A stretch of 32,324 bases of DNA from Candidatus Dormiibacterota bacterium (GTDB lineage: Bacteria > Chloroflexota > Dormibacteria > Aeolococcales > Aeolococcaceae), in contig PLWW01000020.1 in the NCBI GenBank assembly GCA_003153125.1, positions 1 through 32,324 on the forward strand, given 5' to 3'. Below, one piece after another: positions 13,340-29,481 of this stretch; the first letter of the stretch is position 1, and every line of letters begins with the position of its first letter. The translations under genes were made by a program, and so were the position numbers. The notes beneath the pieces were generated by a model that made no database searches, was not told where the DNA came from, and saw only the letters and a list, made by a program, of their open reading frames with translations.

Positions 13340-13385
13340 CCGGGGGGATGCTAGCGAAAACCCTCTGACCGCGCCGGCCGGACGG

Positions 13386-15059
13386 CTAGGGCAGCGCGGA
13401 GAACGCGGTGTCTCCGCCACCGATGGCGAGCGGTCCGTACCAGGTGGTACCGATCCGCCAGAAGAAGTTGAGCGCCGCCCCAGGGCCCTCGGTCGCGACG
13501 TCGAGGTTGCCGTTCGCCTCGGCCGCGATGGATGGCGCGGAGTACGTGGAACCGGCGCCTCCGATCATCACGGGCGCGCTCCATGCACCGTGACCTGTGT
13601 ACACATCGAGGCTGTGCGACGGCCCCTGCACCGCAGCATAGGTGTCCCCCCCGGAGACGGTCACCGCCGGCGCAGAGTACGCGGTCCCCGAGGCGGCGAC
13701 TTGGCTGGTCGAGCCGCCCCCCGCGGAGGCTTCGAGCGTGGCCCCACTTCCCTGGTAGAGGGTCGCCGTGGCCGAGCTCGACGCGCCTGAGTAATCGGCG
13801 TACGCGCTCGACCAGGCCACGGGACCGGACCAGGACCCGTCGCCGTGCTGCAGGTAGGCGTACAGGGCGGCGTTGCCACCTTGGACGACCGTCTGGAGAA
13901 TCGGTGCTCCGCTGCCCACCAGCGAGAGATCCGGCGCCGAGTACGTCGTGTTGGGTGCGCTCAGACCATAGGGGCCGCTCCATGTGCCGCCAACACACCA
14001 GAACAGGTACGTGCCATTCCCGGGGCTCTGCACGGCCACGGTGACGTGCTGGTTCTTGTCGACCACGATGGACGGCGTGGAGTACACCATGCCGGTGCCG
14101 CCCACTCCGAGCGGGCCGTACCACCTGCCCGAGATGTCCCAGTACATGTACAGGCTGTGGTCGGGACCCTCGACTGCGATGTCGAGGTTGCCGTCGCTCT
14201 GGGCCACGATCGCGGGTGCGGAGTAAGCGGCGTCGATGGAGCCGAGGCCCAGCGGCCCGTACCACCGGCCGGCAACGTTCCAGTAGAAGTGCAACGAGTG
14301 GTCGGAGCCTTGAACGGCGACGTTGACGCTGCCGTTGGTCGGCGAGATCGCTTCCGCGACGGACGTTCCGCTCGTGCTCACCACGACCGCGTCACCGTGG
14401 AATGCCGCGAACCGGGCCTCGAAGAGAGCCATCGGATACACATGGATCCTGCCGTCCAGCGGGTCGGCGAGGGTCACAGTCCCGTTGACCTGGTCGAAGC
14501 CGGCGAGCACCTGGGCGTGGTCGCTGTGCGAGTACCACACCTGGCGGCCGTCCCACGCCGTCCACATGCCGACCGACGCCGCGGCAAGGAGGTGGGGCAC
14601 CAGGACCACGACGGGGTCGCCCGCGGCTACGGCAGCGTAGAGCTGGGCGGGCTGCCAGCCCTCCTCGCCGTCGGCGGCTGCCCCCTCGGCGATGGCGGCG
14701 CTGGCGATCGGCGGGTAGTACACGCCGTACCCGGTGACCACGAAGTTGCCGTTGACGTGGCCGACAAAGCTCTGGTACGGGTCACCCCAGCGGACGGGGT
14801 TGCCGCCCGACATGACCGGCGGCCGGAGGTCGGCCCCGAACTGCTGGAGGAGCTGGTCCTGGGTGACGCTGATACCGACGGCGGAGAGTGCCATCTGAAG
14901 CGCCGCCGCCTCGCAGTCCAGGCTGTACTTCTGCACCACGGGGACGATGGGGATGTTCGCTGAGGTGGCCGCATGAACCGGGGTGGGGGCGCGCAGCAAC
15001 ACTGCGGGGGCGAGCACCAGGAGGATTGCGGCGGGCACGCGTCGGCGGGCGGCGATCAT
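13386..15059 (-). CDS. Secreted C39-like domain protein with seven-repeat propeller
   Basis: This is a 557-residue exported protein. Residues 1-30 form a signal peptide (basic start, hydrophobic core, likely cut near VHA-A). Residues about 36-225 resemble the Peptidase_C39_2 papain-like fold: candidate catalytic C49 in QKYSLDCEAAA, H181 in HSDHAQVLAGF and D199 in LADP. Residues about 233-557 hold seven repeats of about 46 residues, each with a V-QG-x-(D/N)-x-SL-x-x-(Y/F)W core, a W(Y/S)GP turn and a YSAP edge, like PLL/tectonin seven-bladed propellers. The last repeat ends at the stop codon. The start has GGAGG 11 nt upstream. No C39-bearing ABC transporter is present, so this is probably a stand-alone secreted hydrolase or inactive binding domain. 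It heads the minus-strand operon and is divergent from three other propeller genes. Confidence 0.85.
   Translation of the reverse strand: MIAARRRVPAAILLVLAPAVLLRAPTPVHAATSANIPIVPVVQKYSLDCEAAALQMALSAVGISVTQDQLLQQFGADLRPPVMSGGNPVRWGDPYQSFVGHVNGNFVVTGYGVYYPPIASAAIAEGAAADGEEGWQPAQLYAAVAAGDPVVVLVPHLLAAASVGMWTAWDGRQVWYSHSDHAQVLAGFDQVNGTVTLADPLDGRIHVYPMALFEARFAAFHGDAVVVSTSGTSVAEAISPTNGSVNVAVQGSDHSLHFYWNVAGRWYGPLGLGSIDAAYSAPAIVAQSDGNLDIAVEGPDHSLYMYWDISGRWYGPLGVGGTGMVYSTPSIVVDKNQHVTVAVQSPGNGTYLFWCVGGTWSGPYGLSAPNTTYSAPDLSLVGSGAPILQTVVQGGNAALYAYLQHGDGSWSGPVAWSSAYADYSGASSSATATLYQGSGATLEASAGGGSTSQVAASGTAYSAPAVTVSGGDTYAAVQGPSHSLDVYTGHGAWSAPVMIGGAGSTYSAPSIAAEANGNLDVATEGPGAALNFFWRIGTTWYGPLAIGGGDTAFSALP
13389..14360 (-). 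repeat. Seven tandem propeller repeats in the C39-like protein
   Basis: Seven degenerate repeats of about 46 codons are visible in translation. Repeats 1, 2 and 7 keep the full pattern (for example GRWYGPLG). Repeats 4 and 5 are most diverged and lack several aromatics. The count fits a closed seven-bladed propeller, unlike the six repeats of the three plus-strand paralogs. Confidence 0.7.
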
Positions 15060-15340
15060 GGGGCGGCGGTCCTCCGCAACCGGTGGCGGAATGCCGGTGG
15101 ATTCGAGTAGACCACGGAAATTCAGCCTGCGCGCACACGCCGAGAAATCGTGACCGTCCCTGGCTGGACGCAGGGCGGGAGGTGTCAGGGGATCTGACGG
15201 TGTCCTCGCTGGGGCGGGTCAGGGGCGGGCCATACGACGCTCCGCCCGGTCGCTCGGCATACACTGGCTGCGCCGACTTGGGCCACGCTTGGTTCTGCCC
15301 GGCTGGCTGCTGGACGTGCTGGGCGCTGTGGGGAGGTGGC
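15060..15340. promoter_or_regulatory. Divergent intergenic region between propeller operons
   Basis: This 281-base gap separates the minus-strand C39-like gene from the plus-strand HELAE-motif gene. On the plus strand GGCATACACT (15256-15265) contains a possible -10 TACACT and matches GGCATACTCT at 3100-3109. On the minus strand CTACTC near 15105-15110 is a weak -10 candidate. Two small palindromes occur: CGTCC-6-GGACG (15155-15170) and GTCAG-GGGAT-CTGAC (15184-15198). GTCAGGGG is directly repeated at 15184-15191 and 15218-15225, 34 bases apart, so a protein-binding site is possible. I see no gene in it. A plus-strand frame is open across it but has no coding character. Confidence 0.45.
15331..15336 (+). 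promoter_or_regulatory. Ribosome binding site GGGAGG that decides the start
   Basis: GGGAGG stands 4 nt before ATG 15341. The frame is open for another 453 bases upstream, so this site together with the signal peptide that follows fixes the start. Confidence 0.7.
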
Positions 15341-17323
15341 ATGGCCCGTGTGAAGGGGGTTCGGGTGGTTGCCCTCCTCGTCGTGCTGGCCGCCTCCGGC
15401 ATTAGCGCACGTGGTGGCGCGGTCACGGCCAGTGCCGCCGCCGCGTTGACTGCCGCGCCCAGCCCGGCCGCCACCCCGGCGACCCGCTTGCGGCCGGGGG
15501 TGATGCCGCTTGTGGGCGCTGGCTTGGGATCGGCCCCAGCCACGGGCGCGGCAGGTGTGCTGCCCCCGCCCACCGCTCACCTCAGCTATCTGGGTGGCCG
15601 GGTGATCTCGACGATCAGCGTCGTCCAGGTGCTGTACGGCAGCGGACTGGCCACCACGTTGACCTGGGAGAGCCAGGTCAAGAACGCCACGCCGTCGCCG
15701 AGCGTGGCGAGCTTCTACGGTGAGCTCACCAATTCGCCGTACCTCGACTGGATGTCCGAGTACAACACCCTCGGCAGCCCGCAGGGAATCGCCGGCACCA
15801 ACCAGACCATCGCCCGCGGCGGCTTCTTCGCACAGGTATCAATCACGCCGTCGGCCGCAAATGATCCATTCGCGGTGTCGCCAGCGCTGATCGACGATGG
15901 CCAGATCCAGGACGAACTGACCGCGCAGATCGCGGCGGGAAATATCCCGGCCCCGAAGAGGGATGCAAACAACAACATCCGGACGCTGTACGCCATCTAC
16001 TTCCCACACGCCGTGACCATCACCATCCACAACACTGACGGCACGATCGCCAGCTCCGGAACGGACTTCTGCGCGTACCACGGGACGACATCGCGAACAG
16101 TACCGTCACGGGAGACGTACTACAGCGTCCTCCCCGACTTCACCACCAACGGCATGAGAACGAATTGCGGTTCGGGCAGCGAGTTCCAGAACGTCACGGC
16201 CGTCTCCTCACATGAGCTGGCCGAGGCGATCACCGACCCCGAGGTGGGGTTGGCCACGGCGGACACACCGGGGCCCCCACTCGCCTGGTACGACGTGCAG
16301 AACAACGGTGAGGCGGCCGACCTCTGCAACGGCATCGACGGCACGGTCACCGGCGAGGACGGGTTCACCTATACGGTCCAGAAGGCCTGGAGCAACGCCC
16401 AGCGTGCGTGTGTGCTCGCCCCCGGTCCACACGTCTTCTCGCCCCAGGGCGTCGGGGCGCCGCAGGTCTCCGCGACCCCCGACGGCAGCACCCAGCTGGT
16501 CTTCTGGAAGGACGCCACCACTGACCAGCTCGCCGAGGCTTGGTACACGGGCTCCTGGAACGGCCCCGTCGGCTTCTCGCAGCTAGGCACTATCACCTCC
16601 AACCCGGCGGTCGCGGTCACCAAGGACGGCAGTACCCAGCTCGTCTTCTGGGAGGGGCCGAATGGCCACCTCTTGGAGGCCTGGTACACCGGCACATGGA
16701 ACGGGCCCCTCGATATCACGGCCACGTATCTCGGCGGCCACTCCATCCTCGCTTCCGCGCCCTCAGTGGCGACCACCATGGACGGCTCCCAGCTGGTCTT
16801 CTGGCGCGGCACCGACGGACATCTCGCCGAAGCCTGGTACTCCAACGGCTGGCACGGCCCCGCCGACTTCACGACCCTTGGCTCCATGGCCTCAGCGCCG
16901 AGCGCCGCCGTGACACCCGACGGCTCGACGCAGCTGGTCTTCTTCCAGGGCACCGACAACCACCTCACCGAGGACTGGTTCACGGGCGCATGGAACGGGC
17001 CCACCGACTGGACCACCCTCGGCACCGTCGGCTCCTCGCCGACCGTCACCGTCACCCCCGACAACTCCACCCAGCTCGTCTTCTCCAAAACGCCCGCCGG
17101 GCACCTCCAGGAATCGTGGTACACCGGGGGTGCCTGGCACGGCCCCGTGGACTGGACGAACTCTGCCTTCGCCGGCGACGGCGTTCTGACCTCCTCGCCC
17201 AGTGCCACCGTCACCGTGGACGGATCCACCCAGCTTGTCTTCTGGCAAGGCGCCGGATCCACGCTCTGGGAGGGCTGGTACGCCGGCGGTGCCTGGCACG
17301 GCCCAGTCGACTGGAGCGGTTGA
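15341..17323 (+). CDS. Secreted HELAE-motif domain protein with six-repeat propeller
   Basis: This is a 660-residue exported protein. Residues 1-34 form a signal peptide (MARVKG, then a long Val/Leu/Ala core). After an Ala/Pro-rich linker, residues about 70-355 form a domain with FCAYHGTTS, a VSSHELAEAITDP motif (H291, E292, E295, D299), AWYD and an EAADLC segment. This order resembles the EXORDIUM/phosphate-induced-protein family (PF04674) and its bacterial relatives. The H-E-x-x-E arrangement could bind a metal, but no canonical HExxH is present, so protease activity is unproven. Residues about 370-660 are six repeats of about 48 residues (DGSTQLVFW, then L-x-E-x-WYTG-x-WNGPVD), ending DWSG at the stop. 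Such repeats resemble six-bladed lectin propellers, so the protein may bind glycans outside the cell. Confidence 0.86.
   Translation: MARVKGVRVVALLVVLAASGISARGGAVTASAAAALTAAPSPAATPATRLRPGVMPLVGAGLGSAPATGAAGVLPPPTAHLSYLGGRVISTISVVQVLYGSGLATTLTWESQVKNATPSPSVASFYGELTNSPYLDWMSEYNTLGSPQGIAGTNQTIARGGFFAQVSITPSAANDPFAVSPALIDDGQIQDELTAQIAAGNIPAPKRDANNNIRTLYAIYFPHAVTITIHNTDGTIASSGTDFCAYHGTTSRTVPSRETYYSVLPDFTTNGMRTNCGSGSEFQNVTAVSSHELAEAITDPEVGLATADTPGPPLAWYDVQNNGEAADLCNGIDGTVTGEDGFTYTVQKAWSNAQRACVLAPGPHVFSPQGVGAPQVSATPDGSTQLVFWKDATTDQLAEAWYTGSWNGPVGFSQLGTITSNPAVAVTKDGSTQLVFWEGPNGHLLEAWYTGTWNGPLDITATYLGGHSILASAPSVATTMDGSQLVFWRGTDGHLAEAWYSNGWHGPADFTTLGSMASAPSAAVTPDGSTQLVFFQGTDNHLTEDWFTGAWNGPTDWTTLGTVGSSPTVTVTPDNSTQLVFSKTPAGHLQESWYTGGAWHGPVDWTNSAFAGDGVLTSSPSATVTVDGSTQLVFWQGAGSTLWEGWYAGGAWHGPVDWSG
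16440..17320 (+). repeat. Six tandem propeller repeats, copy A
   Basis: Six repeats of about 48 codons carry the cores PDGSTQLVFWK, KDGSTQLVFWE, MDGSQLVFWR, PDGSTQLVFFQ, PDNSTQLVFSK and VDGSTQLVFWQ. Each blade is most like the same-numbered blade of copy B (18186-19058), including the one-residue deletion in blade 3 and the FFQ...EDWF variant in blade 4. This shows that the whole propeller was duplicated, not single blades. Confidence 0.85.
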
Positions 17324-17395
17324 CCGCACGGGCTCCTGTCTGGGAGGGGTCCGCTCCGCCGACCTTAAGTTCGCACCTGACGAGTACCCTTGCCG

Positions 17396-17401
17396 TACGC
17401 T
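17396..17401 (+). promoter_or_regulatory. Candidate -10 box TACGCT
   Basis: TACGCT precedes the IPT-propeller gene. A start site near 17408 would give a leader of about 34 nt holding the AAGGTGAGG ribosome binding site (17425-17433) before ATG 17442. TACCCT at 17385-17390 is an alternative. Confidence 0.3.
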
Positions 17402-17441
17402 AATGCCGTCCGAACACGTCAGGCAAGGTGAGGTTTCGCTG

Positions 17442-19061
17442 ATGAGGTCGTCGCGTCGCTCCGTGCTGCTGGGCAGCGTCCTCGCCCTGGTGCTTTCCGG
17501 TGGCTTCGTGACCGTCGCTCACGCTACGGTTCCCGCGATCACGTCACTGTCGGTAGCGCCGGGAGGGACGTGGACCACCGAAGGTGGCCAACAACTGATC
17601 ATCTACGGGACCGGCCTGACCGGCGCGACCTCGATCCAGTTCGGTCTCACCTCGAACGCAACTGTCGTGCTGAGCACCTTCGCCTGCCCGACCGGAACGG
17701 GGTCGGCGGGCTGCTTCACCGTCAACAGCGACCTACAGATCACGGTGTTGACCCCCGGCCACCCGCAATCGACGGCCGACGTCACGGTCACGACCCCCGG
17801 CGGGACCAGTTCCACGAGCAGCGCGGACCAGATGATGTGGGTCGCGTCCCCACCGAAAGCGGTCAGCCTCTCGGTACATTCCGGCTCGCCCGGCTCGCGC
17901 ATCACCGTCGCTCCCGCCGACGGACAACAGGAACTGTCGGCCTACGACTTCACGACCAGGGTCGACTTCGTTCCGGCGTCTGGACCCACCATCTCAGTCA
18001 GCACCCATCCCTGTCCCAGCCCGGCCCCCGCCGCGGGCTGTTATCAGGAGAGTGCCGACCTCGACATCTTGACGGCTCCGACCACGGGGTTCACGTTCGG
18101 CACGATCTATGACGTGAAGGTGACGACAGCCGGTGGCACCAGCCCCGTCAACCCCTCCACTGACCAATTCACCTTCGTCACGAGCTTTTCACCGCAGAGC
18201 GTGGGGGCGCCCCAGGTCGCGGTGACCCCCGACGGCTCCACCCAGCTCGTGTTCTGGAAGAGCACCGCCACCAACCAGCTCGCCGAGGCCTGGTACACCG
18301 GCTACTGGAACGGGCCGGTCGGGTTCCCCCAGCTGGGCGCCCTCTCCTCCACCCCCGGCGTTGCCGTGACCAAGGATGGCAGCACCCAGCTGGTCTTCTG
18401 GCAAGGCCCCTCGGGCCACCTCATGGAGGCCTGGTACACGGGCGTCTGGAACGGGCCCCTCGACATCACCAACACCTACCTCGGCGGCCACGGCATCCTC
18501 GGCTCCGCTCCCTCGGTGACCACAACCAAGGACGGCACCCAGCTGGTCTTCTGGCGTGGCACCGACGGCCACCTCGCCGAAGCCTGGTTCTCGGGCACCT
18601 GGCACGGCCCGGTTGACTTCACCACCCTCGGCTCCCTGACCTCGGCGCCAAGCTCCACGATCACCGCCGACGGATCCACCCAGCTGGTCTTCTTCCAGGG
18701 CAGCGACGGCCGCCTCACCGAGGACTGGTTCACCGGTGTCTGGAACGGGCCGGCACGATTCGGTGCGGTCAGTTCGCAGCCCAGCGTCGCCGTCACCCCG
18801 GACGGCTCCACCCAGCTCGTCTTCTACAAGAGCGCCGCCGGGCACCTCCTCGAGTCCTGGTACACGGGAACATGGAACGGCCCCGTGGACTTCACGACCA
18901 CCGCCTTCGGCGGCACCGGCCTGCTGACATCGTCACCCAGCGCCACCGTCACCGTCGACGGCTCCACCCAGATCGTCTTCTGGCAGGGCTCCGGCAACAC
19001 CCTCTGGGAGGGCTGGTACGCGGGCGGCGCCTGGCACGGACCGGTCAATTACAGCGGCTGA
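17442..19061 (+). CDS. Secreted IPT/TIG-domain protein with six-repeat propeller
   Basis: This is a 539-residue exported protein. Residues 1-29 form a signal peptide (MRSSRRS, hydrophobic core, VAHA cut). Residues about 31-235 look like two Ig-like IPT/TIG domains. The first has the typical GGQQLIIYGTGLTGATSIQFG strand pattern and ends VTVTTPGGTS. The second is more diverged and ends VKVTTAGGTS. Each has a pair of cysteines (FACPTGTGSAGC and HPCPSPAPAAGC) that could form a disulfide. Residues about 250-539 are six propeller repeats closely matching the upstream gene. No catalytic domain is visible, so it is probably an adhesin or binding protein. An in-frame ATG at 17403 exists, but 17442 has AAGGTGAGG 8 nt upstream and opens directly into the signal peptide. 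Confidence 0.86.
   Translation: MRSSRRSVLLGSVLALVLSGGFVTVAHATVPAITSLSVAPGGTWTTEGGQQLIIYGTGLTGATSIQFGLTSNATVVLSTFACPTGTGSAGCFTVNSDLQITVLTPGHPQSTADVTVTTPGGTSSTSSADQMMWVASPPKAVSLSVHSGSPGSRITVAPADGQQELSAYDFTTRVDFVPASGPTISVSTHPCPSPAPAAGCYQESADLDILTAPTTGFTFGTIYDVKVTTAGGTSPVNPSTDQFTFVTSFSPQSVGAPQVAVTPDGSTQLVFWKSTATNQLAEAWYTGYWNGPVGFPQLGALSSTPGVAVTKDGSTQLVFWQGPSGHLMEAWYTGVWNGPLDITNTYLGGHGILGSAPSVTTTKDGTQLVFWRGTDGHLAEAWFSGTWHGPVDFTTLGSLTSAPSSTITADGSTQLVFFQGSDGRLTEDWFTGVWNGPARFGAVSSQPSVAVTPDGSTQLVFYKSAAGHLLESWYTGTWNGPVDFTTTAFGGTGLLTSSPSATVTVDGSTQIVFWQGSGNTLWEGWYAGGAWHGPVNYSG
18186..19058 (+). repeat. Six tandem propeller repeats, copy B
   Basis: Six repeats are colinear with copy A and very similar at DNA level (for example the CCGACGG/ACC-CAGCT-GTCTTCTGG core of each blade). 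Blade 4 differs: its distal part (GPARFGAVSSQPSV) is about three residues shorter than in copy A, a small deletion after duplication. The array closes at NYSG and the stop. Confidence 0.85.
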
Positions 19062-19125
19062 ACCCGGCTCTGAAGCAGCCGCGTTCCGACCCGGCGACGG
19101 AGCGGTTCCCTTCGGGTAGCGTGGC

Positions 19126-19131
19126 TATCCT
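19126..19131 (+). promoter_or_regulatory. Probable -10 box TATCCT (leaderless-type spacing)
   Basis: TATCCT is followed by 9 nt and ATG 19141 with no ribosome binding site. This is the same geometry as at 181, 1619, 3011(-) and 7274(-). The GH18 gene therefore probably has its own promoter and does not rely on readthrough from the gene 79 bases upstream. Confidence 0.5.
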
Positions 19132-19140
19132 CCCGGTTCC

Positions 19141-21438
19141 ATGGACCTGAAGGGGCCGCTCCGGCTCGTGGCCGCCGTTCTGGGGATGTGCCTCGTGAGC
19201 ACGGGCTTAGGTCCCGTGTCGATGGCCACCGCGGCGGCGTCCGGCGCGGCCGTCATGCCGTTCCGCGCGCACGTGTTCTTCGACGACACCATGGGCCCAC
19301 CACCAGCGGGTCTTGTCCGCGGAGCGGTCGCAAGCGTGTTGACCGACCCCAAGGTGCCCGTGGTGCGCGCGGCATCCACGTCAAGCACAGCCGCCGCGGC
19401 GGGTCAGACCGCCTCGATCCCTCCCCCGGACCCCGAGATCCTCGGCTTCGCACAGTCCGGAGAGGTGGCCTCGGGGGCATGGATCGCGGACCTCCGCTTC
19501 AACCTGCTCTCGACGATCGCCTACTTCGGCATCAACCTCAACCTGGACGGGACCCTGGTCACCAGCGACACCGGGTACCTGACCTGGTGGAGCAGTCAGG
19601 AGACCAACCTGATCGACGCGGCGCACGTCGCCGGCGACCGCGTCGTGCTGACCGTCAAGGCTTTCAACGACCCGCTGATCGCCGCGGTCACCGGCACCGA
19701 ACAGGCCCGTCAGACCCTGATCACCAGCATCATCGACCAGGTCGTGACGCGCCCGGCGGACGGGGTCAACATCGACTTCGAAGGAGTCAGTGCGGGCCTG
19801 TCCGCCAACTTCACCACGTTCATCAGCGAGTTGCAGGGCGCCCTCCTGGCGCGGGCAGCGGGACGCTCCTACCTGACCGTGGACACATACGCCAGCGCCG
19901 GGCTGGGCGGGAGCATGTATGACCTCGCGGCGCTCTGGCACCACGTCGACGCTCTCGACCTCATGGGCTACGGCTTCGCGCCGTGCGTGGCGGGGCATTC
20001 CGGACCGACTGCCCCGATGGGCGGTTGCTGGTACAGCGTCACCCAGTCGGTCACCGACTACATGACCAGGTTCGGAGTCCCGGCCAGCGAATTGCTCCTC
20101 GGGGTGCCGTACTACGGCTACAAGTGGAGCGTGAGCGGCGTCGGCGCCGCCGGGCAGGACGCGGCCGTTCCGGGCAGCACCGACAGCGCCGACACCTACG
20201 CCGGCGCACTCTCCGACTTCAGCTGCGCGCTGAAGCTCCAGCAGCACTGGGACGCGACGTTCCAGGAGCCGTGGGCTTCCTGGTACAGCCCGGCGACGGG
20301 TGACCCGTGCGGGGGCAACCACAACTCCTACCGTGAGCTGTACTACGACAACGCCCAGTCACTCGGCCTCAAGTACGACCTGGTCAACAACCGCGGCTTG
20401 CGCGGCATCGCCATCTGGGCGCTCGGTTACGACAGCGGCAGCAACGACCTGTGGAACGAGATCGCCGCCAAGTTCAGCGTCGCCAAGTTCCCGCCATTCC
20501 AGCCCAAGTCCGTGGGCGCGCCGGCGGCGGCCGTGCTGCCCGACGGCTCCCAGCAACTGGTCTTCTGGCGAAGCGCCGCCGACAACCACCTCGTCGAGGG
20601 CTGGTACTCCGGCGGGTACTGGCGCGGTCCCCTGGACCTCACCACCCTCCTCGGCCCCAACGCCGTCCTCCAATCGGCTCCGAGCGTCGCCGTGACCCCT
20701 GACGGGTCGACCCAGACCGTGTTCTGGCAGGGGCCCGGCAACCACCTGTACGAGGCGTGGTGGGCAGGCGGGCGCTGGAACGGGCCGCTGGATGTCACCA
20801 GCGCAGCGGGCGACCCCACGGCTGTGCTGGCGTCGGCGCCCAGTGCCGCGGTCACACCTGACGGATCGACCCAGACGGTGTTCTGGAGATCGTCGAGCGG
20901 GCACCTCGACGAGGCGTGGTGGGCGGGGGCACGCTGGAACGGGCCGGTGGACTGGTCCCGCAGAGCCTTCGCGGATGCCGCCGCGCTGGCGTCCGCCCCG
21001 AGCGCGGCGATCATGCCGGACGGCTCCCAGCAGCTGGTCTTCTGGCAGGGACCGGGCGGACACCTGTACGAGGCGTGGTGGGCGGCGGCGCGGTGGAACG
21101 GACCGGTCGACATCACGGGCGGATCCCTGCGGGGCGCCGGCCTGCTCGCATCGGCGCCGAGCGCCACGATCTTCGCCGACGGTTCGCAGCAACTCGTCTT
21201 CTGGACGGGTGCGGGCGGACACCTCGTGCAGGCCTGGTTTGCAGGCGGCCGGTGGTACGGGCCTGCCGACTGGACCGGGACCACCTTCGGCGGTGTTGGC
21301 ACGCTGGCCTCGGCGCCGAGTGCCACAGTTCTCCCCGACGGCTCACAGCAGCTGGTCTTCTGGCAGGGCTCCGGCTCCACTCTTTGGGAGGCATGGTTCG
21401 CCGGTCGCTGGTATGGGCCGATGAACCTCAGCGGCTAG
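19141..21438 (+). CDS. Secreted GH18 (YaaH/SleL-like) hydrolase with six-repeat propeller
   Basis: This is a 765-residue exported protein. Residues 1-35 form a signal peptide. Residues about 95-445 form a glycoside hydrolase family 18 barrel: DGVNIDFE (207-214) is the DxxDxDxE motif with Asn at the second position, as in spore cortex hydrolases of the YaaH/SleL type, and E214 is the expected acid. LDLMGYGF, LLLGVPYYGYKW and GIAIWALGYDSG match the later strands. GH18 enzymes act on N-acetylglucosamine-containing chains (chitin, peptidoglycan) with substrate-assisted catalysis. Residues about 455-765 are six propeller repeats (PDGS-Q-QLVFWQG, HLYEAWWAG, RWNGPVD) ending NLSG. These repeats are richer in EAWW than in the two upstream paralogs, so this propeller is an older relative. 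The stop shares CTAG with the convergent wzt. Confidence 0.9.
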   Translation: MDLKGPLRLVAAVLGMCLVSTGLGPVSMATAAASGAAVMPFRAHVFFDDTMGPPPAGLVRGAVASVLTDPKVPVVRAASTSSTAAAAGQTASIPPPDPEILGFAQSGEVASGAWIADLRFNLLSTIAYFGINLNLDGTLVTSDTGYLTWWSSQETNLIDAAHVAGDRVVLTVKAFNDPLIAAVTGTEQARQTLITSIIDQVVTRPADGVNIDFEGVSAGLSANFTTFISELQGALLARAAGRSYLTVDTYASAGLGGSMYDLAALWHHVDALDLMGYGFAPCVAGHSGPTAPMGGCWYSVTQSVTDYMTRFGVPASELLLGVPYYGYKWSVSGVGAAGQDAAVPGSTDSADTYAGALSDFSCALKLQQHWDATFQEPWASWYSPATGDPCGGNHNSYRELYYDNAQSLGLKYDLVNNRGLRGIAIWALGYDSGSNDLWNEIAAKFSVAKFPPFQPKSVGAPAAAVLPDGSQQLVFWRSAADNHLVEGWYSGGYWRGPLDLTTLLGPNAVLQSAPSVAVTPDGSTQTVFWQGPGNHLYEAWWAGGRWNGPLDVTSAAGDPTAVLASAPSAAVTPDGSTQTVFWRSSSGHLDEAWWAGARWNGPVDWSRRAFADAAALASAPSAAIMPDGSQQLVFWQGPGGHLYEAWWAAARWNGPVDITGGSLRGAGLLASAPSATIFADGSQQLVFWTGAGGHLVQAWFAGGRWYGPADWTGTTFGGVGTLASAPSATVLPDGSQQLVFWQGSGSTLWEAWFAGRWYGPMNLSG
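20500..21435 (+). repeat. Six tandem propeller repeats, copy C
   Basis: Six repeats of about 51 codons have cores PDGSQQLVFWR, PDGSTQTVFWQ (blades 2-3), PDGSQQLVFWQ and ADGSQQLVFWT. Blades 2-5 resemble one another more than do the blades of copies A and B, suggesting later internal homogenisation. The final blade keeps the STLWE signature found in blade 6 of A and B. Confidence 0.85.
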
Positions 21439-22691
21439 GCTCCCTCGAAACGCCCCGGCCCGCTGCCATTGCGCGACTGCTGCCAGGTGCCGTCGAGGTC
21501 GACCATCCCCAACCTGCCCTGCTCGTCGACCACCCGGAAGGACAGGACGTCCTCGATGTGGTCGAACGGATGGTTGAGGACGCTGTCGTACACCGCCGCG
21601 GTGAGGACGTACCTGGCCCCGAGAAGGCCGACGTGGGGGATGGTGTAGGTGATCGTGCCTCGCGTCCCTGGCCCGGATGAGCTCACCCGGCAGTTGGCGG
21701 TCCGGGTGTTGGGGCCGGAGATGTTGATCCCGTCGCTGCGCTTGAAGGCGAGGCCGAAGACGAAGTCGCTGACGTCGGCGTGGACGGCATAGTCGATCGC
21801 CACGGTGAGGCCGCCACCCGTGGCAAACGAGGAGTGCTCGCTGCCCGCGTCGTCGAGCAATCGCACCGCAGTGATCTCGACGTCCCGCGTCCCCCAGCGA
21901 TTCTCCGTGGCCATGGCCGCGCCGGCGTGGTGGTCCTTGTCGTCGGCCTCCGCCATCACCCCCACGAGCCGGCGGTACTGGGCGGTGACGTCGGCCGCCG
22001 GCCCGTCGGACACGAGGTGGCCCTTCTGGAAAAGGATGACCCGGTCGCAGTAGAGGTTCAGGGAGCTGAGGTCGTGACTGACGAGGATGATGGTGCGGCC
22101 ATGGCGCTTGTAGTCGGAGAAGACGTCGAAGCACTTCTCCTGGAATCGAGCGTCACCGACCGCAAGGACCTCGTCCATCAGCAGGATGTCGGCGTCTGCC
22201 TGGATGGCGACGGTGAACGCCAGGCGCACCGCCATGCCCGACGAGAAGTTCTTGACCTTCTGGTCGGCGAACTCCGTGAGCTCCGAGAAATCGAGGATGC
22301 CGTGGACGCGGTCGGCAAGTTCCCGGCGGGTCAAACCCAGGACGGCGCCGCCGAGGAAGATGTTCTCGCGCGCTGACAGCTCCGGGTTGAAGCCGACCCC
22401 GAGCTCGAGGAACGGGGCCACGCGCCCGGCAATGCGGACCCTCCCGGAGTCGGGGGAGTAGATCCGCGACAGGATCTTCAACAACGTGCTCTTGCCACAC
22501 CCGTTCGGCCCCGTAATGCCTAGGAACTCGCCGGCGCCGACGTTGAAGCTGACGTCGTCCAGCGCCAGGAGATCGCGGTAGCGCGCGGCGCTGCGCAGGT
22601 GCGTGATGCGGTGCTTGAGCGTGAAGCTGCGATCCAGCGGGATCCGGAAGTGCTTGGTGACCGATTCAACCCGGACTGCCGGGTCGCTCAC
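21435..22691 (-). CDS. wzt: Polysaccharide ABC transporter ATP-binding protein, Wzt type
   Basis: This 418-residue ATPase powers export of a lipid-linked polysaccharide across the inner membrane with the upstream permease. It shows Walker A GPNGCGKS (61-68), a Q-loop region at FLELGVGFNPELSARENI, ABC signature NFSSGM (148-153), Walker B ADILLMDE (167-174) and H-loop H206. Residues about 250-418 form a beta-rich C-terminal domain like the Wzt carbohydrate-binding domain, which in E. coli O8/O9a recognises the finished, capped chain end. Its presence suggests that the exported glycan carries a recognised terminal group, possibly the methyl group added by one of the local methyltransferases. The GTG start overlaps the permease stop as GTGA. 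Confidence 0.94.
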   Translation of the reverse strand: MSDPAVRVESVTKHFRIPLDRSFTLKHRITHLRSAARYRDLLALDDVSFNVGAGEFLGITGPNGCGKSTLLKILSRIYSPDSGRVRIAGRVAPFLELGVGFNPELSARENIFLGGAVLGLTRRELADRVHGILDFSELTEFADQKVKNFSSGMAVRLAFTVAIQADADILLMDEVLAVGDARFQEKCFDVFSDYKRHGRTIILVSHDLSSLNLYCDRVILFQKGHLVSDGPAADVTAQYRRLVGVMAEADDKDHHAGAAMATENRWGTRDVEITAVRLLDDAGSEHSSFATGGGLTVAIDYAVHADVSDFVFGLAFKRSDGINISGPNTRTANCRVSSSGPGTRGTITYTIPHVGLLGARYVLTAAVYDSVLNHPFDHIEDVLSFRVVDEQGRLGMVDLDGTWQQSRNGSGPGRFEGA

Positions 22692-23542
22692 AGGGCTTCA
22701 CCGAATTTGGGGCTGAGCCTGTTGAACACGAGGAGACCCACAAGGAAGACGAGGCACACCGCCGCACAGGGCACGATCAGCAGCGACCCGAGGATGTCGG
22801 ACGACCACGGAATCACGGGCGTGATCAGGGCACGGCGTGTGTCCTCGAGCATCTGGGCGAGGGGATTGAAGGCGATGAGCAGCCGGAATCGGCCGGGAAT
22901 CAGAGAGAACGGGAAGACGATCGCGCTCGCGTAGAAGAGCAGCTGCAGCGTGATCTCCCAGACGTGACCGAGGTCGCGATAGAAGACAAACAACGACGAG
23001 AGGAGCAGCCCGATGCCCGCCACCAGGATGTACAGCTCCACGAAGAGAAGGGGCAGCAGCAGGGCCTGCAGCCCCACATGGAACCAGCCGAGGGGAAAGC
23101 CGATTACGAGCACCAGCGCGAGGTTCACCGCGAAGGTCATGCTCGCGCTGAGCGTCGAGGCGAGCACCAGGATCCAGCGGGGGAAATACGCCTTACGCAC
23201 GATGTGCGCGTTGCCCACGATGGCGCCCACAGCCGACTGGGTGGCGTCGGCGAAGAACGTCCAGATCACAATCCCCACAAGCAGTTCCACGGGGAAGTTC
23301 TCCCCCGCCTTGGTGCGGCCGCGCAGCAGGAAGACTGCGAACACCAGGTAGGTCGTGCCGAAGATGAGCAGCGGCTTGACCAACGACCATGCGTAGCCGA
23401 GGACCGAGCCGGTGTACTTCAGCTTGAACGCGGTCACAGCGAGTTCGCGCGTGAGGTTGAGATGAATACGGAACGCCGACGGGCGGGGGCCGACCTCACG
23501 CGTCGTGACCGGGCGCTCGGAGAGTGCGGGGTCAGAGATCAT
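22688..23542 (-). CDS. wzm: Polysaccharide ABC transporter permease, Wzm type
   Basis: This 284-residue ABC-2 type membrane protein has six predicted membrane helices after a cytosolic N-terminal region of about 50 residues. The YTGSVLGYAWSLVKPLL segment and the later FYRDLGHVWEITLQLLFYAS and FNPLAQMLEDTR blocks are characteristic of TagG/Wzm permeases. It forms the channel through which undecaprenyl-linked polysaccharide is moved, with two Wzt subunits. It is the first gene of a two-gene unit and its stop overlaps wzt. The ATG at 23542 has no clear ribosome binding site. The nearest -10 candidate (TACAAT, 23637-23632) would give a leader of about 80 nt containing a hairpin. Confidence 0.94.
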   Translation of the reverse strand: MISDPALSERPVTTREVGPRPSAFRIHLNLTRELAVTAFKLKYTGSVLGYAWSLVKPLLIFGTTYLVFAVFLLRGRTKAGENFPVELLVGIVIWTFFADATQSAVGAIVGNAHIVRKAYFPRWILVLASTLSASMTFAVNLALVLVIGFPLGWFHVGLQALLLPLLFVELYILVAGIGLLLSSLFVFYRDLGHVWEITLQLLFYASAIVFPFSLIPGRFRLLIAFNPLAQMLEDTRRALITPVIPWSSDILGSLLIVPCAAVCLVFLVGLLVFNRLSPKFGEAL

Positions 23543-25876: not shown

Positions 25877-26962
25877 GTGAAGGGTCTGATCCTGAGCGGA
25901 GGGAAGGGTACCCGCCTCCGTCCGATCACGCACACCTCGGCAAAGCAGCTCGTACCCATTGCCAACAAGCCGATCCTCTTCTATGCGATCGAAGCGGTCG
26001 TCGCCGCCGGCATCACCGATATCGGCATCATCACAGGCGAGACGGGTGCCGAGGTGGAGGCCGCCGCGGGCGACGGGTCACGGTTTGGCGCGCACCTCAC
26101 CTATATCCCGCAGGCAGCGCCCCTTGGCCTCGCCCACGCGGTCCTCAGTGCGAGGGCCTTCCTCGGTGCCGATTCATTCGTGATGTACCTGGGCGACAAC
26201 CTCATCCGCCACGGCATCGTGCCGATCGTCGAGAGCTTCAAGGAGACCACTCCGGACGCACTGATCCTGCTTGCCCGCGTCCCTGAACCGCAGCATTTCG
26301 GCGTGGCCGAGTTGAGCGACGGCAAGGTGGTGCGCCTGGTTGAAAAGCCGGCGCATCCCGTCAGCGACCTCGCCCTGGTGGGCGTCTACCTGTTCAACCA
26401 CACTGTGTTCGACGCCATCGATTCCATCGAGTATTCGGCGCGCGGCGAGCTCGAGATCACCGACGCGATCCAGAAGATGATCGACGGAGGTCGCCGCGTC
26501 CAATCCCACCTCATCACCGAGCCACACGAGGCCATGGTCGCGACGTGGAAGGACACCGGCCGCCTCGAGGACATGCTCGAGGCCAACCGCATCGTGCTCG
26601 ACGACCTGCCCGCCCACATCGACGGCACCGTCGGTGACGATGTTCGCCTCCACGGCAAGGTCATCGTCCAATCGGGCGCGACCCTGCGCAACTGCACGGT
26701 GCGCGGGCCGGCAATCATCGGTGAGAACACGGTGATCGATGATGCTTACATCGGCCCCTACACGTCGATCTACTATGGCTGCACAGTGCGCAGGGCAGAG
26801 ATCGAGCACAGCATCGTCTTGGAGAACAGCGTGATCGACGACGTTGACGGCCGCATCGAATCCTCGCTGATCGGTAAGGAGTGCCGGATCGGACGGTCGC
26901 CGCTGCGGCCGCGCACGATCAAGCTGATGGTGGGCGACCACAGCCGCGTGGAGCTGCGCTGA
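25877..26962 (+). CDS. rmlA: Glucose-1-phosphate thymidylyltransferase (long form)
   Basis: This is the first enzyme of dTDP-L-rhamnose synthesis (glucose-1-phosphate + dTTP to dTDP-glucose). The 361-residue product begins with the nucleotidyltransferase motif LSGGKGTRLRPIT (6-18), has K23 in SAKQLVPIANKP, D107 in YLGDNL and EKP at 156-158. Residues about 245-361 are hexapeptide-like repeats (left-handed beta helix: TVRGPAIIGENTVIDDAYIG). This makes it the long RmlA type found with StrD-like enzymes, not the 290-residue enterobacterial form. The frame is open far upstream (to 24410), but homology starts exactly at GTG 25877, the chosen start. It overlaps the next gene by one base (TGATG), so the four rml genes form one operon. 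Confidence 0.94.
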   Translation: MKGLILSGGKGTRLRPITHTSAKQLVPIANKPILFYAIEAVVAAGITDIGIITGETGAEVEAAAGDGSRFGAHLTYIPQAAPLGLAHAVLSARAFLGADSFVMYLGDNLIRHGIVPIVESFKETTPDALILLARVPEPQHFGVAELSDGKVVRLVEKPAHPVSDLALVGVYLFNHTVFDAIDSIEYSARGELEITDAIQKMIDGGRRVQSHLITEPHEAMVATWKDTGRLEDMLEANRIVLDDLPAHIDGTVGDDVRLHGKVIVQSGATLRNCTVRGPAIIGENTVIDDAYIGPYTSIYYGCTVRRAEIEHSIVLENSVIDDVDGRIESSLIGKECRIGRSPLRPRTIKLMVGDHSRVELR

Positions 26963-27540
26963 TGGCCTGGATGGCGCTGACCCCGGAGATCGAGACGGCG
27001 CTGGAAGACATGGGCAACCGCCCCGCCTCGCAGCGTGTGGGCCGCATCCGTGACGTCCAGGTCAAGACCTTTGTGAAGCACGCCGACCAGCGAGGCTTTT
27101 TCATCGAGCAACTCAAGCGCGGAGACGTCGATGATGACGGACGCCCCTTCATGGATGAACGCCCCTTTGCGCAGATGTCGCGAAGCCTCGTGTATGCACG
27201 CGGCGGCAACCCACCGGAGTTGATCAAGGCATTCCATTGGCACAAGAAGCAGTGGGACTACTGGGATATCGTGGTCGGCAACGCCCGCGTGGTGCTGGTT
27301 GACCTGCGCCCGGCCTCCCCCACCGCCGGCACGATCCAGACCGTGATCCTCGGCGAGAACAGCCCGCGCATGGTGGCCATTCCACCACTGGTCGCCCACG
27401 GGTACCAGTGTCTCGGCATGGACAACGTGCATCTCGTGTACTACGTCACCGAACCGTACGACCCCGCCGACCCGGACGAGGGCCGGATCGCGTGGAATGA
27501 TCCGCGCATCAGCTTCGACTGGCGCATCGAGAACATCTGA
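26962..27540 (+). CDS. rmlC: dTDP-4-dehydrorhamnose 3,5-epimerase-like protein
   Basis: This 192-residue cupin sits where RmlC is expected and matches it in size. It would epimerise dTDP-4-dehydro-6-deoxy-D-glucose at C3 and C5. Seen are QRGFFIEQ (43-50), the histidine-containing AFHWHKKQWDYWDIV strand (90-104, H92 and H94), VVLVDLRPASP (110-120) and VAHGYQCLG (144-152). The classic GVLRGLHYQ motif is absent and replaced by PELIKAFHWHKKQ, so it belongs to a divergent RmlC-like branch. In related proteins the active-site His lies in this strand. An alternative is a different 3- or 5-epimerase or isomerase acting on the same intermediate, although the rml context favours RmlC. The start ATG overlaps the rmlA TGA. 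Confidence 0.82.
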   Translation: MAWMALTPEIETALEDMGNRPASQRVGRIRDVQVKTFVKHADQRGFFIEQLKRGDVDDDGRPFMDERPFAQMSRSLVYARGGNPPELIKAFHWHKKQWDYWDIVVGNARVVLVDLRPASPTAGTIQTVILGENSPRMVAIPPLVAHGYQCLGMDNVHLVYYVTEPYDPADPDEGRIAWNDPRISFDWRIENI

Positions 27541-27565
27541 TGCACAGGCAGGGAAGTACAGCCGG

Positions 27566-28588
27566 ATGAGGCTGCTCGTGTCCGGCGGAGCGGGGTTCAT
27601 CGGCAGCGAGTTCGTGAGGCAGACGATCGCCAGCCATCCCGAGGACTCCGTGATCGTGCTCGACAAGCTCACCTACGCGGGCAACGTGCACAACCTCGAC
27701 CCGGTCGCAGAGGTGCCGTCGTTTCGGTTCGTCCATGGCGACATCTGCGACATGGAACTCGTCGACACGTTGATCAGCGACGTTGATGTCGTCGTCAACT
27801 TCGCCGCCGAGTCGCACGTGGACCGCTCGCTCGAGGCGCCAGGACAGTTCATCCAGACAGACGTGTTCGGCACCTTCGTCCTCCTCGAGGCGGCGCGCCG
27901 CGCGGGGCACGACCGCTTCTTGCAGGTGTCCACCGACGAGGTGTACGGGGACATCGAGCTCGGCACCAGCTCCGAAGGCGATCCACTCCGGCCGCGCAGC
28001 CCGTACTCGGCGAGCAAGGCGGGCGCCGAGTTGATGGTGTGGGCGTACCGCGCCTCCTACGGCATGCCCGTCATCACGACCAGGGGCTCAAATACCTACG
28101 GGCCATACCAATACCCCGAGAAGATCATCCCCCTGTTCATCACCAACGCCATCGACGACCAGCCGCTGCCCATCTACGGCGACGGCAGCGCCGTGCGCGA
28201 CTACCTCCACGTCGCAGACCACGCACGCGGCATTGACACGGCGCTGCGCACAGGTACGCCGGGTGAGGACTACAACGTGGGCTTCGGTGGCGCCACCAAC
28301 GGGCGCGAGATCGCGGACCTCGTCCTCGCTGCCCTCGACAAACCGGATTCGCTGAAGCAGCACGTCCGCGACCGCCTCGGGCACGACCGTCGCTACGCCG
28401 TTGACACCGCGAAGCTGCGCTCCCTCGGCTGGAGGCCTGAGGTTCCCTTGGAACGCGGCCTCCGCGAGACGGTTGCCTGGTACCGCGCCAACGAAGCGTG
28501 GTGGCGCCCGCTCAAGTCAGGCGAGTTCTGGGACTTCTACCGGCGCAACTACAAGCCGCTGGACGCGGGAGCGGCGCGACCGTCGTGA
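27566..28588 (+). CDS. rmlB: dTDP-glucose 4,6-dehydratase
   Basis: This enzyme converts dTDP-glucose to dTDP-4-dehydro-6-deoxyglucose, the second step to dTDP-rhamnose. The 340-residue product has GGAGFIG (7-13), LDKLTYAGN (32-40), NFAAESHVDRS (78-88), the catalytic STDEVYGD block with T123-D124-E125, Y147-x3-K151 and the NTYGPYQYPEKIIPLF region typical of RmlB. ATG 27566 is used because the Rossmann strand follows at once. The frame opens further upstream at 27497, but that part overlaps rmlC. A weak GGGAAG (27551-27556) lies upstream. The stop overlaps the rmlD start as GTGA. Confidence 0.96.
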   Translation: MRLLVSGGAGFIGSEFVRQTIASHPEDSVIVLDKLTYAGNVHNLDPVAEVPSFRFVHGDICDMELVDTLISDVDVVVNFAAESHVDRSLEAPGQFIQTDVFGTFVLLEAARRAGHDRFLQVSTDEVYGDIELGTSSEGDPLRPRSPYSASKAGAELMVWAYRASYGMPVITTRGSNTYGPYQYPEKIIPLFITNAIDDQPLPIYGDGSAVRDYLHVADHARGIDTALRTGTPGEDYNVGFGGATNGREIADLVLAALDKPDSLKQHVRDRLGHDRRYAVDTAKLRSLGWRPEVPLERGLRETVAWYRANEAWWRPLKSGEFWDFYRRNYKPLDAGAARPS

Positions 28589-29481
28589 GGATCCTCCTCA
28601 CGGGCGGGGCCGGTCAGCTCGGCCGGGAGTTGCTCGACACGGCCACGGCGGAAGGGCACGAGGTGCGCTCCACCACGCGCGCCGAGTGCGACATCACCAG
28701 CCCGGCGCAGGTACGAGCGGTCCTCGACGACGCACGCCCCGAGGTGGTCATCAACTGCGCCGCGTGGACGAAGGTCGACGCCGCCGAGTCCGAGAGTGAT
28801 GCCGCCTTCCTCATCAACGCCATCGGCCCCCGCGTCCTGGCCGGGGCGTGTGCCGCCCGCGACGTCCTGCTCGTGCAGATCAGCACCGACTACGTGTTCG
28901 ACGGCACTGCCACCTCGCCCATCGACGAGTGGCAGCGCCCCCACCCCCGGTCCGTCTATGGCGCCAGCAAGCTCGCCGGGGAGTACGAGGTGCGCGCCCT
29001 CGCCAAGCGTCACCTGGTGATCCGCACGTCCTGGTTGTACGGACGCGACGGGCCCAACTTCGTGCTCACCATGCTTCGCGCGGCGGCAGCGCGGCCCGAG
29101 CTGCGGGTGGTGTCCGACCAGGTCGGCAGCCCCACCTGGACGGGCCACCTCGCGCCGATCGTGCTCCGGGCGATCGCACGCGACGTGCCCGGCACCCTCC
29201 ATCTCACCAACTCGGGCGTGGTCAGCTGGCACGGGTTCGCGGAAGCAATCGTGGCCGCCGCGGGCAGGTCCACGCCGGTGATCCCCATCACCACCGCCGA
29301 GTACCCCACGGCGGCGCCGCGACCGAGCTACTCGGTGCTCGACAACCGCGCCTGGCGCCTCCTCGGGGAGGATCCGCTCCCGGACTGGCGTGAGGGGTTG
29401 ACCTCGTACCTCGCCAACCTGCCCGCCACCGGTGTCCCGGGGCATAGTGCCGCCGGGCGCGTCGCCCATGACCTCCCCTGA
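28585..29481 (+). CDS. rmlD: dTDP-4-dehydrorhamnose reductase
   Basis: This NAD(P)H-dependent reductase completes dTDP-L-rhamnose. The 298-residue protein has GGAGQLG (7-13), INCAAWTKVDAAE (56-68), ISTDYVFDG (99-107), Y125-x3-K129 in YGASKLAGE, RTSWLYG (147-153) and a VSDQVGSPTW sugar-binding segment. All are RmlD signatures. The GTG at 28585 overlaps the rmlB stop (GTGA), showing translational coupling. A longer frame begins at 28498 but would run inside rmlB. The next gene starts 14 bases before the rmlD stop. Confidence 0.95.
   Translation: MRILLTGGAGQLGRELLDTATAEGHEVRSTTRAECDITSPAQVRAVLDDARPEVVINCAAWTKVDAAESESDAAFLINAIGPRVLAGACAARDVLLVQISTDYVFDGTATSPIDEWQRPHPRSVYGASKLAGEYEVRALAKRHLVIRTSWLYGRDGPNFVLTMLRAAAARPELRVVSDQVGSPTWTGHLAPIVLRAIARDVPGTLHLTNSGVVSWHGFAEAIVAAAGRSTPVIPITTAEYPTAAPRPSYSVLDNRAWRLLGEDPLPDWREGLTSYLANLPATGVPGHSAAGRVAHDLP

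What the first reader, a model, noticed from the sequence alone, without database searches (positions are those of the whole stretch)
13386..21438. Four secreted proteins with different N-terminal modules on beta-propeller tails, side by side
Seen: one minus-strand and three adjacent plus-strand genes each encode a signal peptide, a distinct N-terminal part (C39-like; HELAE/EXORDIUM-like; two IPT/TIG-like; GH18) and a C-terminal tandem repeat array. The three plus-strand arrays have exactly six repeats ending at the stop codon, and the minus-strand one has seven. Known: six- and seven-bladed propellers of the AAL/PLL/tectonin kind often bind glycans. Inference: this is a modular secreted set in which one glycan-binding chassis carries different effector heads, embedded in a polysaccharide locus. 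I know of no named system with this composition.
Basis: partly seen in the sequence, partly recalled or inferred. Interest (0 to 1): 0.65.

Follow-up and report, generated by a model that had tools for sequence, protein, structure and literature searches.

The report
Lectin-propeller tails shared by secreted hydrolases
An uncultured soil bacterium (Candidatus Aeolococcus) has at least a dozen secreted proteins that carry the same probable sugar-binding propeller on unrelated working ends (enzymes and other domains), four of them side by side in the locus that makes a surface polysaccharide, which suggests a sugar-based way of holding exoenzymes at the cell surface.

Summary
Four secreted proteins sit at 13386-21438: C39 peptidase + 7 repeats (minus strand), then HELAE/EXORDIUM-like, double TIG-like and GH18 heads, each + 6 repeats ending at the stop codon. 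The repeats are homologous to Photorhabdus PLL lectins. A high-confidence model of gene B's tail fits six-bladed AAL lectins best; a moderate model of gene A fits seven-bladed PLL lectins best. The window lies in a Candidatus Aeolococcus MAG (Dormibacterota) with about 14 such genes on at least eight contigs, with further heads (phosphoesterase, CHAP + 12 repeats = 2x6). Relatives add GH25, CAP, A4, M23, Amidase_2 and kinase heads. In Ca. A. gillhamiae the B and D orthologs sit together in the same Wzm/Wzt polysaccharide locus without A and C; a congener has the locus without propellers. Most other copies lie elsewhere. PLL's fucose-site Trp survives in only one blade of each plus-strand tail, so the ligand cannot be inferred. 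Best reading: chimerolectins whose propeller holds lytic or adhesive heads on glycan, perhaps the rhamnose-containing polymer made next door, functionally like C. difficile CWB2 or pneumococcal choline-binding proteins. Architecture is well supported; ligand and function are inferred. New variant of a known kind.

The parts
13386..15059 (-). Gene A: signal peptide (aa 1-30) + C39-like cysteine peptidase (Cys49, His181, Asp199 aligned with 3erv) + seven-bladed propeller
   Evidence: Pfam C39_2 3e-14; 3erv 1e-13 with the aligned C, H and D; NCBIfam beta_propeller_lectin 1.6e-14, below its cutoff; Foldseek to seven-bladed PLL, TMt 0.75-0.78
13389..14336 (-). Gene A propeller, seven repeats of about 45 aa; blade 5 degenerate
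   Evidence: unit HMM finds four clear and two or three weak units; seven blades by eye and in the AF2 strand list at moderate pLDDT
15341..17323 (+). Gene B: signal peptide + HELAE/EXORDIUM-like head + six-bladed propeller (likely ATG 15341, not GTG 14888)
15485..16432 (+). Gene B head: HELAExxTDP...WYD...NGExxDxC family; a distant family member (L103) matches Pfam Phi_1 PF04674 at 2.4e-4
   Evidence: fold not determined (pLDDT mostly below 50)
16436..17320 (+). Gene B propeller, six repeats
   Evidence: AF2 pLDDT about 88-96; Foldseek to AAL-type and PLL lectins
17442..19061 (+). Gene C: signal peptide (SRRSVLLG, Tat-like by eye) + two TIG-like domains + six-bladed propeller
   Evidence: TIG sub-threshold 0.87; six units
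18186..19058 (+). Gene C propeller, six repeats
   Evidence: PLL2 9.7e-16, PHL 3e-15 by phmmer
19141..21438 (+). Gene D: signal peptide + GH18 (DGVNIDFE motif, Glu214) + six-bladed propeller
   Evidence: Pfam GH18 1e-26; GH18 structures incl. YdhD and YaaH; 70% identical ortholog in Ca. A. gillhamiae
20497..21435 (+). Gene D propeller, six repeats of 53 aa
3165..5858 (+). Methyltransferase + two GT2 domains: conserved marker gene of the polysaccharide locus
   Evidence: 80% identical in Ca. A. gillhamiae; family survey
21435..23542 (-). Wzt (with Wzt_C) and Wzm-type ABC polysaccharide exporter
25880..29481 (+). dTDP-rhamnose-type genes rmlA-, rmlB- and rmlD-like
   Evidence: NTP_transferase, GDP_Man_Dehyd/Epimerase and RmlD_sub_bind (7e-102)

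Best explanation
The four genes belong to an expanded family of secreted chimerolectins in Candidatus Aeolococcus. Each is exported by a signal peptide and has one PLL/AAL-type beta-propeller, used as a multivalent glycan-binding module, fused to a different head: mostly cell-wall or extracellular hydrolases (C39, GH18, CHAP, phosphoesterase; GH25, M23, amidase, A4 and CAP in relatives), plus adhesion-type or unknown domains. Shown: architecture, homology, blade number for A and B, reuse of one tail type on unrelated heads, and conserved placement of part of the set in a Wzm/Wzt polysaccharide locus. Inferred: the propeller keeps the heads non-covalently on the cell's own exported polysaccharide (probably rhamnose-containing, possibly O-methylated), so hydrolases work at the surface, functionally like CWB2/PSII or choline-binding-protein anchoring.
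For: Own genome: about 14 propeller genes on at least eight contigs, many heads. Homology and fold. Peptidoglycan-hydrolase heads recur across relatives. Tails within one genome are alike despite unrelated heads: 78-80% (B/C/SIWN) and 90-91% (Ca. A. gillhamiae trio) versus 68% between B orthologs; synonymous distances 0.54-0.66 and 0.28-0.45 versus 1.04. Synteny: B and D orthologs together between YfhO/GT2 and Wzt/Wzm in Ca. A. gillhamiae; four propeller proteins among MT-GT2, rmlB, rmlD and GT2 in G023; MT-GT2 directly beside Wzt with no propeller in G002. Enrichment near GT2 genes: 7 of 28 clusters, 2.0 expected, P 0.003 (post hoc, not phylogenetically independent). PLL-family lectins have been crystallised with L-rhamnose (6rgr) and with an O-methylated PGL-1 disaccharide (6rgg); PHL binds an O-methylated Glc-Rha disaccharide (PMC5584973).
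Against: No binding data. The fucose-site Trp of PLL (LW of each blade) is kept only in the last blade of B, C and D, and the Arg/Glu of the polar site are replaced, so the ligand may differ or some pockets may be dead. 28 of 41 propeller genes are not near a GT2 gene, and tight MT-GT2 co-location is seen in only 4 genomes of 2 genera. C sits beside B and D only in this MAG. Some within-genome synonymous distances overlap the between-species ones, so the timing of tail sharing is uncertain.
Confidence: 0.45

Rival explanations
1. The propellers aim secreted lytic enzymes at other organisms or their remains (cell walls, fungal or algal surface glycans): scavenging or predation, not self-anchoring.
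For: Heads are largely wall- and chitin-lytic (GH18, GH25, CHAP, M23, amidase, A4, phosphoesterase); Photorhabdus PLLs bind foreign glycans (PMC6943638, PMC5584973); most copies are not in polysaccharide loci.
Against: Conserved placement of B/D-type genes inside a polysaccharide synthesis and export locus in two genera; several heads have no recognised catalytic domain (TIG, Big-like, propeller alone).
Confidence: 0.3
2. The propellers are generic structural or adhesive domains without specific glycan binding; the clusters come from tandem duplication and recombination between similar tails.
For: Loss of canonical PLL ligand residues in many blades; tails recombine or duplicate readily; several contigs end inside tails.
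Against: Aromatic residues are strongly conserved in nearly every blade (VFW..., AWY...); reuse on many lytic heads; lectin homology of the whole fold.
Confidence: 0.2
3. A polymorphic-toxin-like contest system in which heads are toxins.
For: Constant module plus variable module, clustered paralogs.
Against: The variable part is N-terminal after a signal peptide, not C-terminal; heads are hydrolases, not known toxin folds; no small immunity-like genes in the A-D cluster (gaps of about 80-280 bp).
Confidence: 0.05

Closest known systems
Photorhabdus PLL/PHL lectins (Pfam DUF346 PF03984; PropLec7A; NCBIfam NF052348 beta propeller lectin, NF052349 BP39L)
   Same: Homologous repeats: phmmer 1e-15, profile A5 2.5e-74; A seven-bladed like PLL.
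   Different: PLL/PHL structures are the propeller alone; here propellers are tails of secreted multidomain proteins. B, C and D have six repeats. Ligand residues only partly kept. A is below the NCBIfam cutoff and the four proteins do not match Pfam DUF346.
AAL-type six-bladed fucose lectins (Fungal_lectin PF07938; AAL, AFL, SapL1)
   Same: B's model fits AAL and related lectins (TMt 0.68-0.74); profile A5 hits AAL at about 1e-19; a GH25-propeller relative hits PF07938 at 7e-5, below cutoff.
   Different: Sequence is much closer to PLL than to AAL.
C. difficile CWB2 cell-wall proteins bound to PSII (PMC4973711)
   Same: One repeat-based anchor on many secreted proteins; the anchor binds a wall polymer; a polymer locus was proposed.
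   Different: No homology: CWB2 repeats are not propellers; here self-binding is only inferred.
Pneumococcal choline-binding proteins (e.g. PMC5137146)
   Same: From general knowledge: a shared repeat module carries amidase, lysozyme, CHAP and esterase heads, a head list much like this one.
   Different: Choline-binding repeats bind phosphocholine on teichoic acid; no fold or sequence relation.

Membership tests
PLL / DUF346 beta-propeller lectins | Significant sequence homology of the repeats | tested here: met
   PLL2 9.7e-16, PHL 3e-15; profile A5 2.5e-74 to 8q83
PLL / DUF346 beta-propeller lectins | Seven blades | tested here: inconclusive
   A: seven (moderate-confidence model), TMt 0.75-0.78 to PLL. 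B-D: six repeats, and B's model fits AAL-type better
PLL / DUF346 beta-propeller lectins | Above the curated Pfam or NCBIfam cutoff | tested here: not met
   No DUF346 hit in the four proteins; A hits NF052348 at 53.7 bits, cutoff 200. Phylum relatives do pass DUF346
PLL / DUF346 beta-propeller lectins | Inter-blade ligand residues (Thr and two Trp of the fucose site; Arg, Glu, Trp of the polar site; PMC5584973) | tested here: not met
   Trp after the conserved Leu kept only in blade 6 of B, C and D; Arg/Glu replaced; Trp of the AWY motif kept
PLL / DUF346 beta-propeller lectins | Glycan binding | not testable with these tools
   needs glycan array, SPR or ITC
AAL-type six-bladed lectins | Six-bladed closed propeller | tested here: met
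   B model: 24 strands, pLDDT about 88-96; TMt 0.68-0.74 to AAL-type lectins. Closure inferred from the match to closed templates; tails of C and D not modelled
AAL-type six-bladed lectins | AAL fucose-site Arg/Glu/Trp set | not tested
   no residue-level superposition was available
CWB2 / choline-binding anchor systems | Homologous anchor repeat | tested here: not met
   no CWB2 or choline-binding repeat in Pfam scans; analogy only
CWB2 / choline-binding anchor systems | Anchor binds own wall polymer | not testable with these tools
   inferred from locus context
Glycoside hydrolase family 18 (head of D) | GH18 homology and catalytic Glu of the DxxDxDxE-type motif | tested here: met
   Pfam 1e-26; DGVNIDFE with Glu214 present, Asn at one motif Asp
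C39-like peptidases (head of A) | Cys, His, Asp catalytic residues | tested here: met
   Cys49, His181, Asp199 align with 3erv
EXORDIUM / Phi_1 (head of B) | Match to PF04674 | tested here: inconclusive
   no direct hit; distant family member L103 hits at 2.4e-4, below cutoff

The most novel reading that the evidence does not exclude
A lectin-propeller-based surface display system: one PLL-type propeller, shuffled onto dozens of secreted heads, recognises the methylated rhamnose polymer made and exported by the same locus, a glycan-receptor counterpart of CWB2, SLH or choline-binding anchoring in an uncultured phylum.
Probability: 0.25. Interest if true: 0.7.

Novelty: new variant of a known kind. 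Interest (0 to 1): 0.5.

Why it matters
PLL-type propellers have been characterised mostly as stand-alone lectins of Photorhabdus and related bacteria. Here the same fold is the recurrent tail of a large secreted hydrolase repertoire in an uncultured soil lineage. If the tail binds the cell's own polysaccharide, it would be a protein-anchoring route for a group whose surface biology is almost unknown, and a head-swappable, six- or seven-bladed lectin scaffold. The keyword searches run in the open-access library found no paper describing it.

Tried and rejected
Genome-contig scan recovered only Ca. A. gillhamiae (its peptide patterns were narrow). Plasmid search: one weak Streptomyces hit. Viral contigs: no relative, so no sign of phage origin. 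Alignment A2 misaligned heads to tails and was discarded. First propeller identity tables and tree used mis-cut tails; one search replaces them. The propeller tree is mostly unresolved (5 of 8 inner branches open), so tail sharing rests on identities and synonymous distances. The head of B has no PDB relative and no confident model. Considered and rejected: polymorphic toxins; chance repeats (each unit of B-D scores 57-81 bits).

Full report
What is there. The window is contig C15 of a 3.02 Mb MAG. The nearest named genome with the same tails is Candidatus Aeolococcus gillhamiae (contig lengths of G003 equal those of QHBU01), placed by the tool in the same genus. Four secreted proteins occupy 13386-21438: A (C39 peptidase, minus strand), B (HELAE head), C (two TIG-like domains), D (GH18). 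B, C and D end in exactly six repeats and the last repeat ends at the stop codon; A has seven. B, C and D run in one direction with gaps of about 120 and 80 bases; A and B are divergent with about 280 bases between the starts.

What the tails are. By sequence they are relatives of Photorhabdus PLL lectins, much more clearly with a profile (2.5e-74), and more distantly of AAL. Blade number fits: the model of B (pLDDT about 88-96 in the tail) matches six-bladed AAL-type lectins best, the moderate model of A matches seven-bladed PLL best. A 12-repeat CHAP protein in both Aeolococcus genomes is a natural 2 x 6. C and D tails were not modelled separately. Ligand residues known from PHL (PMC5584973) are only partly kept: the stacking Trp after the conserved Leu remains only in blade 6 of B, C and D, while the AWY Trp is kept in nearly all blades of these three and an extra Trp (VFW) appears in most. 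Relatives in other genera keep the LWH motif in many blades. So lectin homology is solid, the sugar is not predictable.

How far it extends. The same tail is on C41, C68, C62, C130, C31, C51 and C86 of this genome with other heads: SIWN domain, phosphoesterase + CarboxypepD_reg, CHAP, a tail preceded only by a signal peptide, and tails followed by other modules. In the family: GH25, CAP, A4, PQQ, FG-GAP, TIG-propeller-C39 in swapped order. In the wider phylum sample 100 of 400 genomes have a relative, with M23, amidase, GH18, arylsulfotransferase and protein-kinase heads. Sequence similarity between tails of one genome is high in spite of unrelated heads: 78-80% for B, C and SIWN, 90-91% for three Ca. 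A. gillhamiae proteins, against 68% between B orthologs. Synonymous distances point the same way but overlap in part. This indicates that tails were duplicated, captured or converted among heads.

Genomic context. The window locus has rmlA/B/D-like genes, glycosyltransferases, methyltransferases and a Wzt/Wzm exporter. In Ca. A. gillhamiae the order MT-GT2, GT2, YfhO, B, D, Wzt, Wzm, GT2, MT is kept, without A and C. In G023 (another genus) GH18, propeller-C39, CAP and FG-GAP proteins, all with propellers, are interleaved with MT-GT2, rmlD, rmlB and GT2. In the congener G002 MT-GT2 abuts Wzt and there is no propeller; its HELAE head is fused to FG-GAP-like repeats instead. Over eight genomes 7 of 28 propeller clusters lie within 10 kb of a GT2 gene against 2.0 expected; this was a post hoc count on related genomes, and most clusters lie elsewhere.

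How it probably works. Secretion by signal peptide, binding of the propeller to a glycan, and action of the head near that glycan follow from the architecture. That the glycan is the polysaccharide of the same locus is inference from placement, from PLL-family complexes with L-rhamnose and with an O-methylated rhamnose-containing disaccharide (entries named; PMC5584973), and from the analogy with CWB2/PSII anchoring (PMC4973711). The main rival is targeting of foreign cell walls, which the lytic heads would also fit.

Verdict. Observation confirmed; interpretation right about modularity and fold, unproven about glycan binding, and too narrow in scope. New variant of a known kind.

Noticed in passing
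L126-L132, L135, L138, L139, L141-L143 (f19 genomes): Large genomes of one family carry similar long proteins with a C-terminal PLL-type propeller; in L138 the N-terminal part is a Ser/Thr protein kinase (Pkinase 4.5e-44), which looks like a sugar-sensing kinase. Only L138 was scanned with Pfam; L142 shows kinase-like sequence by eye.
   Followed up: partly
L088:331-2868 (G002): A congener without PLL propellers has the HELAE head of gene B fused to FG-GAP-like repeats: same head on a different repeat tail.
   Followed up: partly
L033, L034, L035, L038 (contigs C68, C62, C130, C86): Contig ends fall inside propeller sequence and L034 holds runs of unresolved bases, so copy number is a lower bound and some propeller genes may be adjacent in the real genome.
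   Followed up: no
L082:5506-7314 and L084:2285-4204: Module order is permuted: (TIG-)propeller-C39, with the peptidase at the C-terminus, whereas window gene A has it at the N-terminus.
   Followed up: partly
L032:4766-6733 and L035:1-1530: An unnamed 'SIWN(T/Q)P(I/V)G' domain without a Pfam match occurs before the propeller in one protein and after it in another.
   Followed up: no
L059:1018-2634 and L038:1-576: Propeller followed by two copies of a repeat with 'GTY...CYW(E/A)RLSGFGGT' of unknown function.
   Followed up: no
window 11339-13420 (-): 693-aa membrane protein with no Pfam match beside gene A; probably part of the polysaccharide locus.
   Followed up: no
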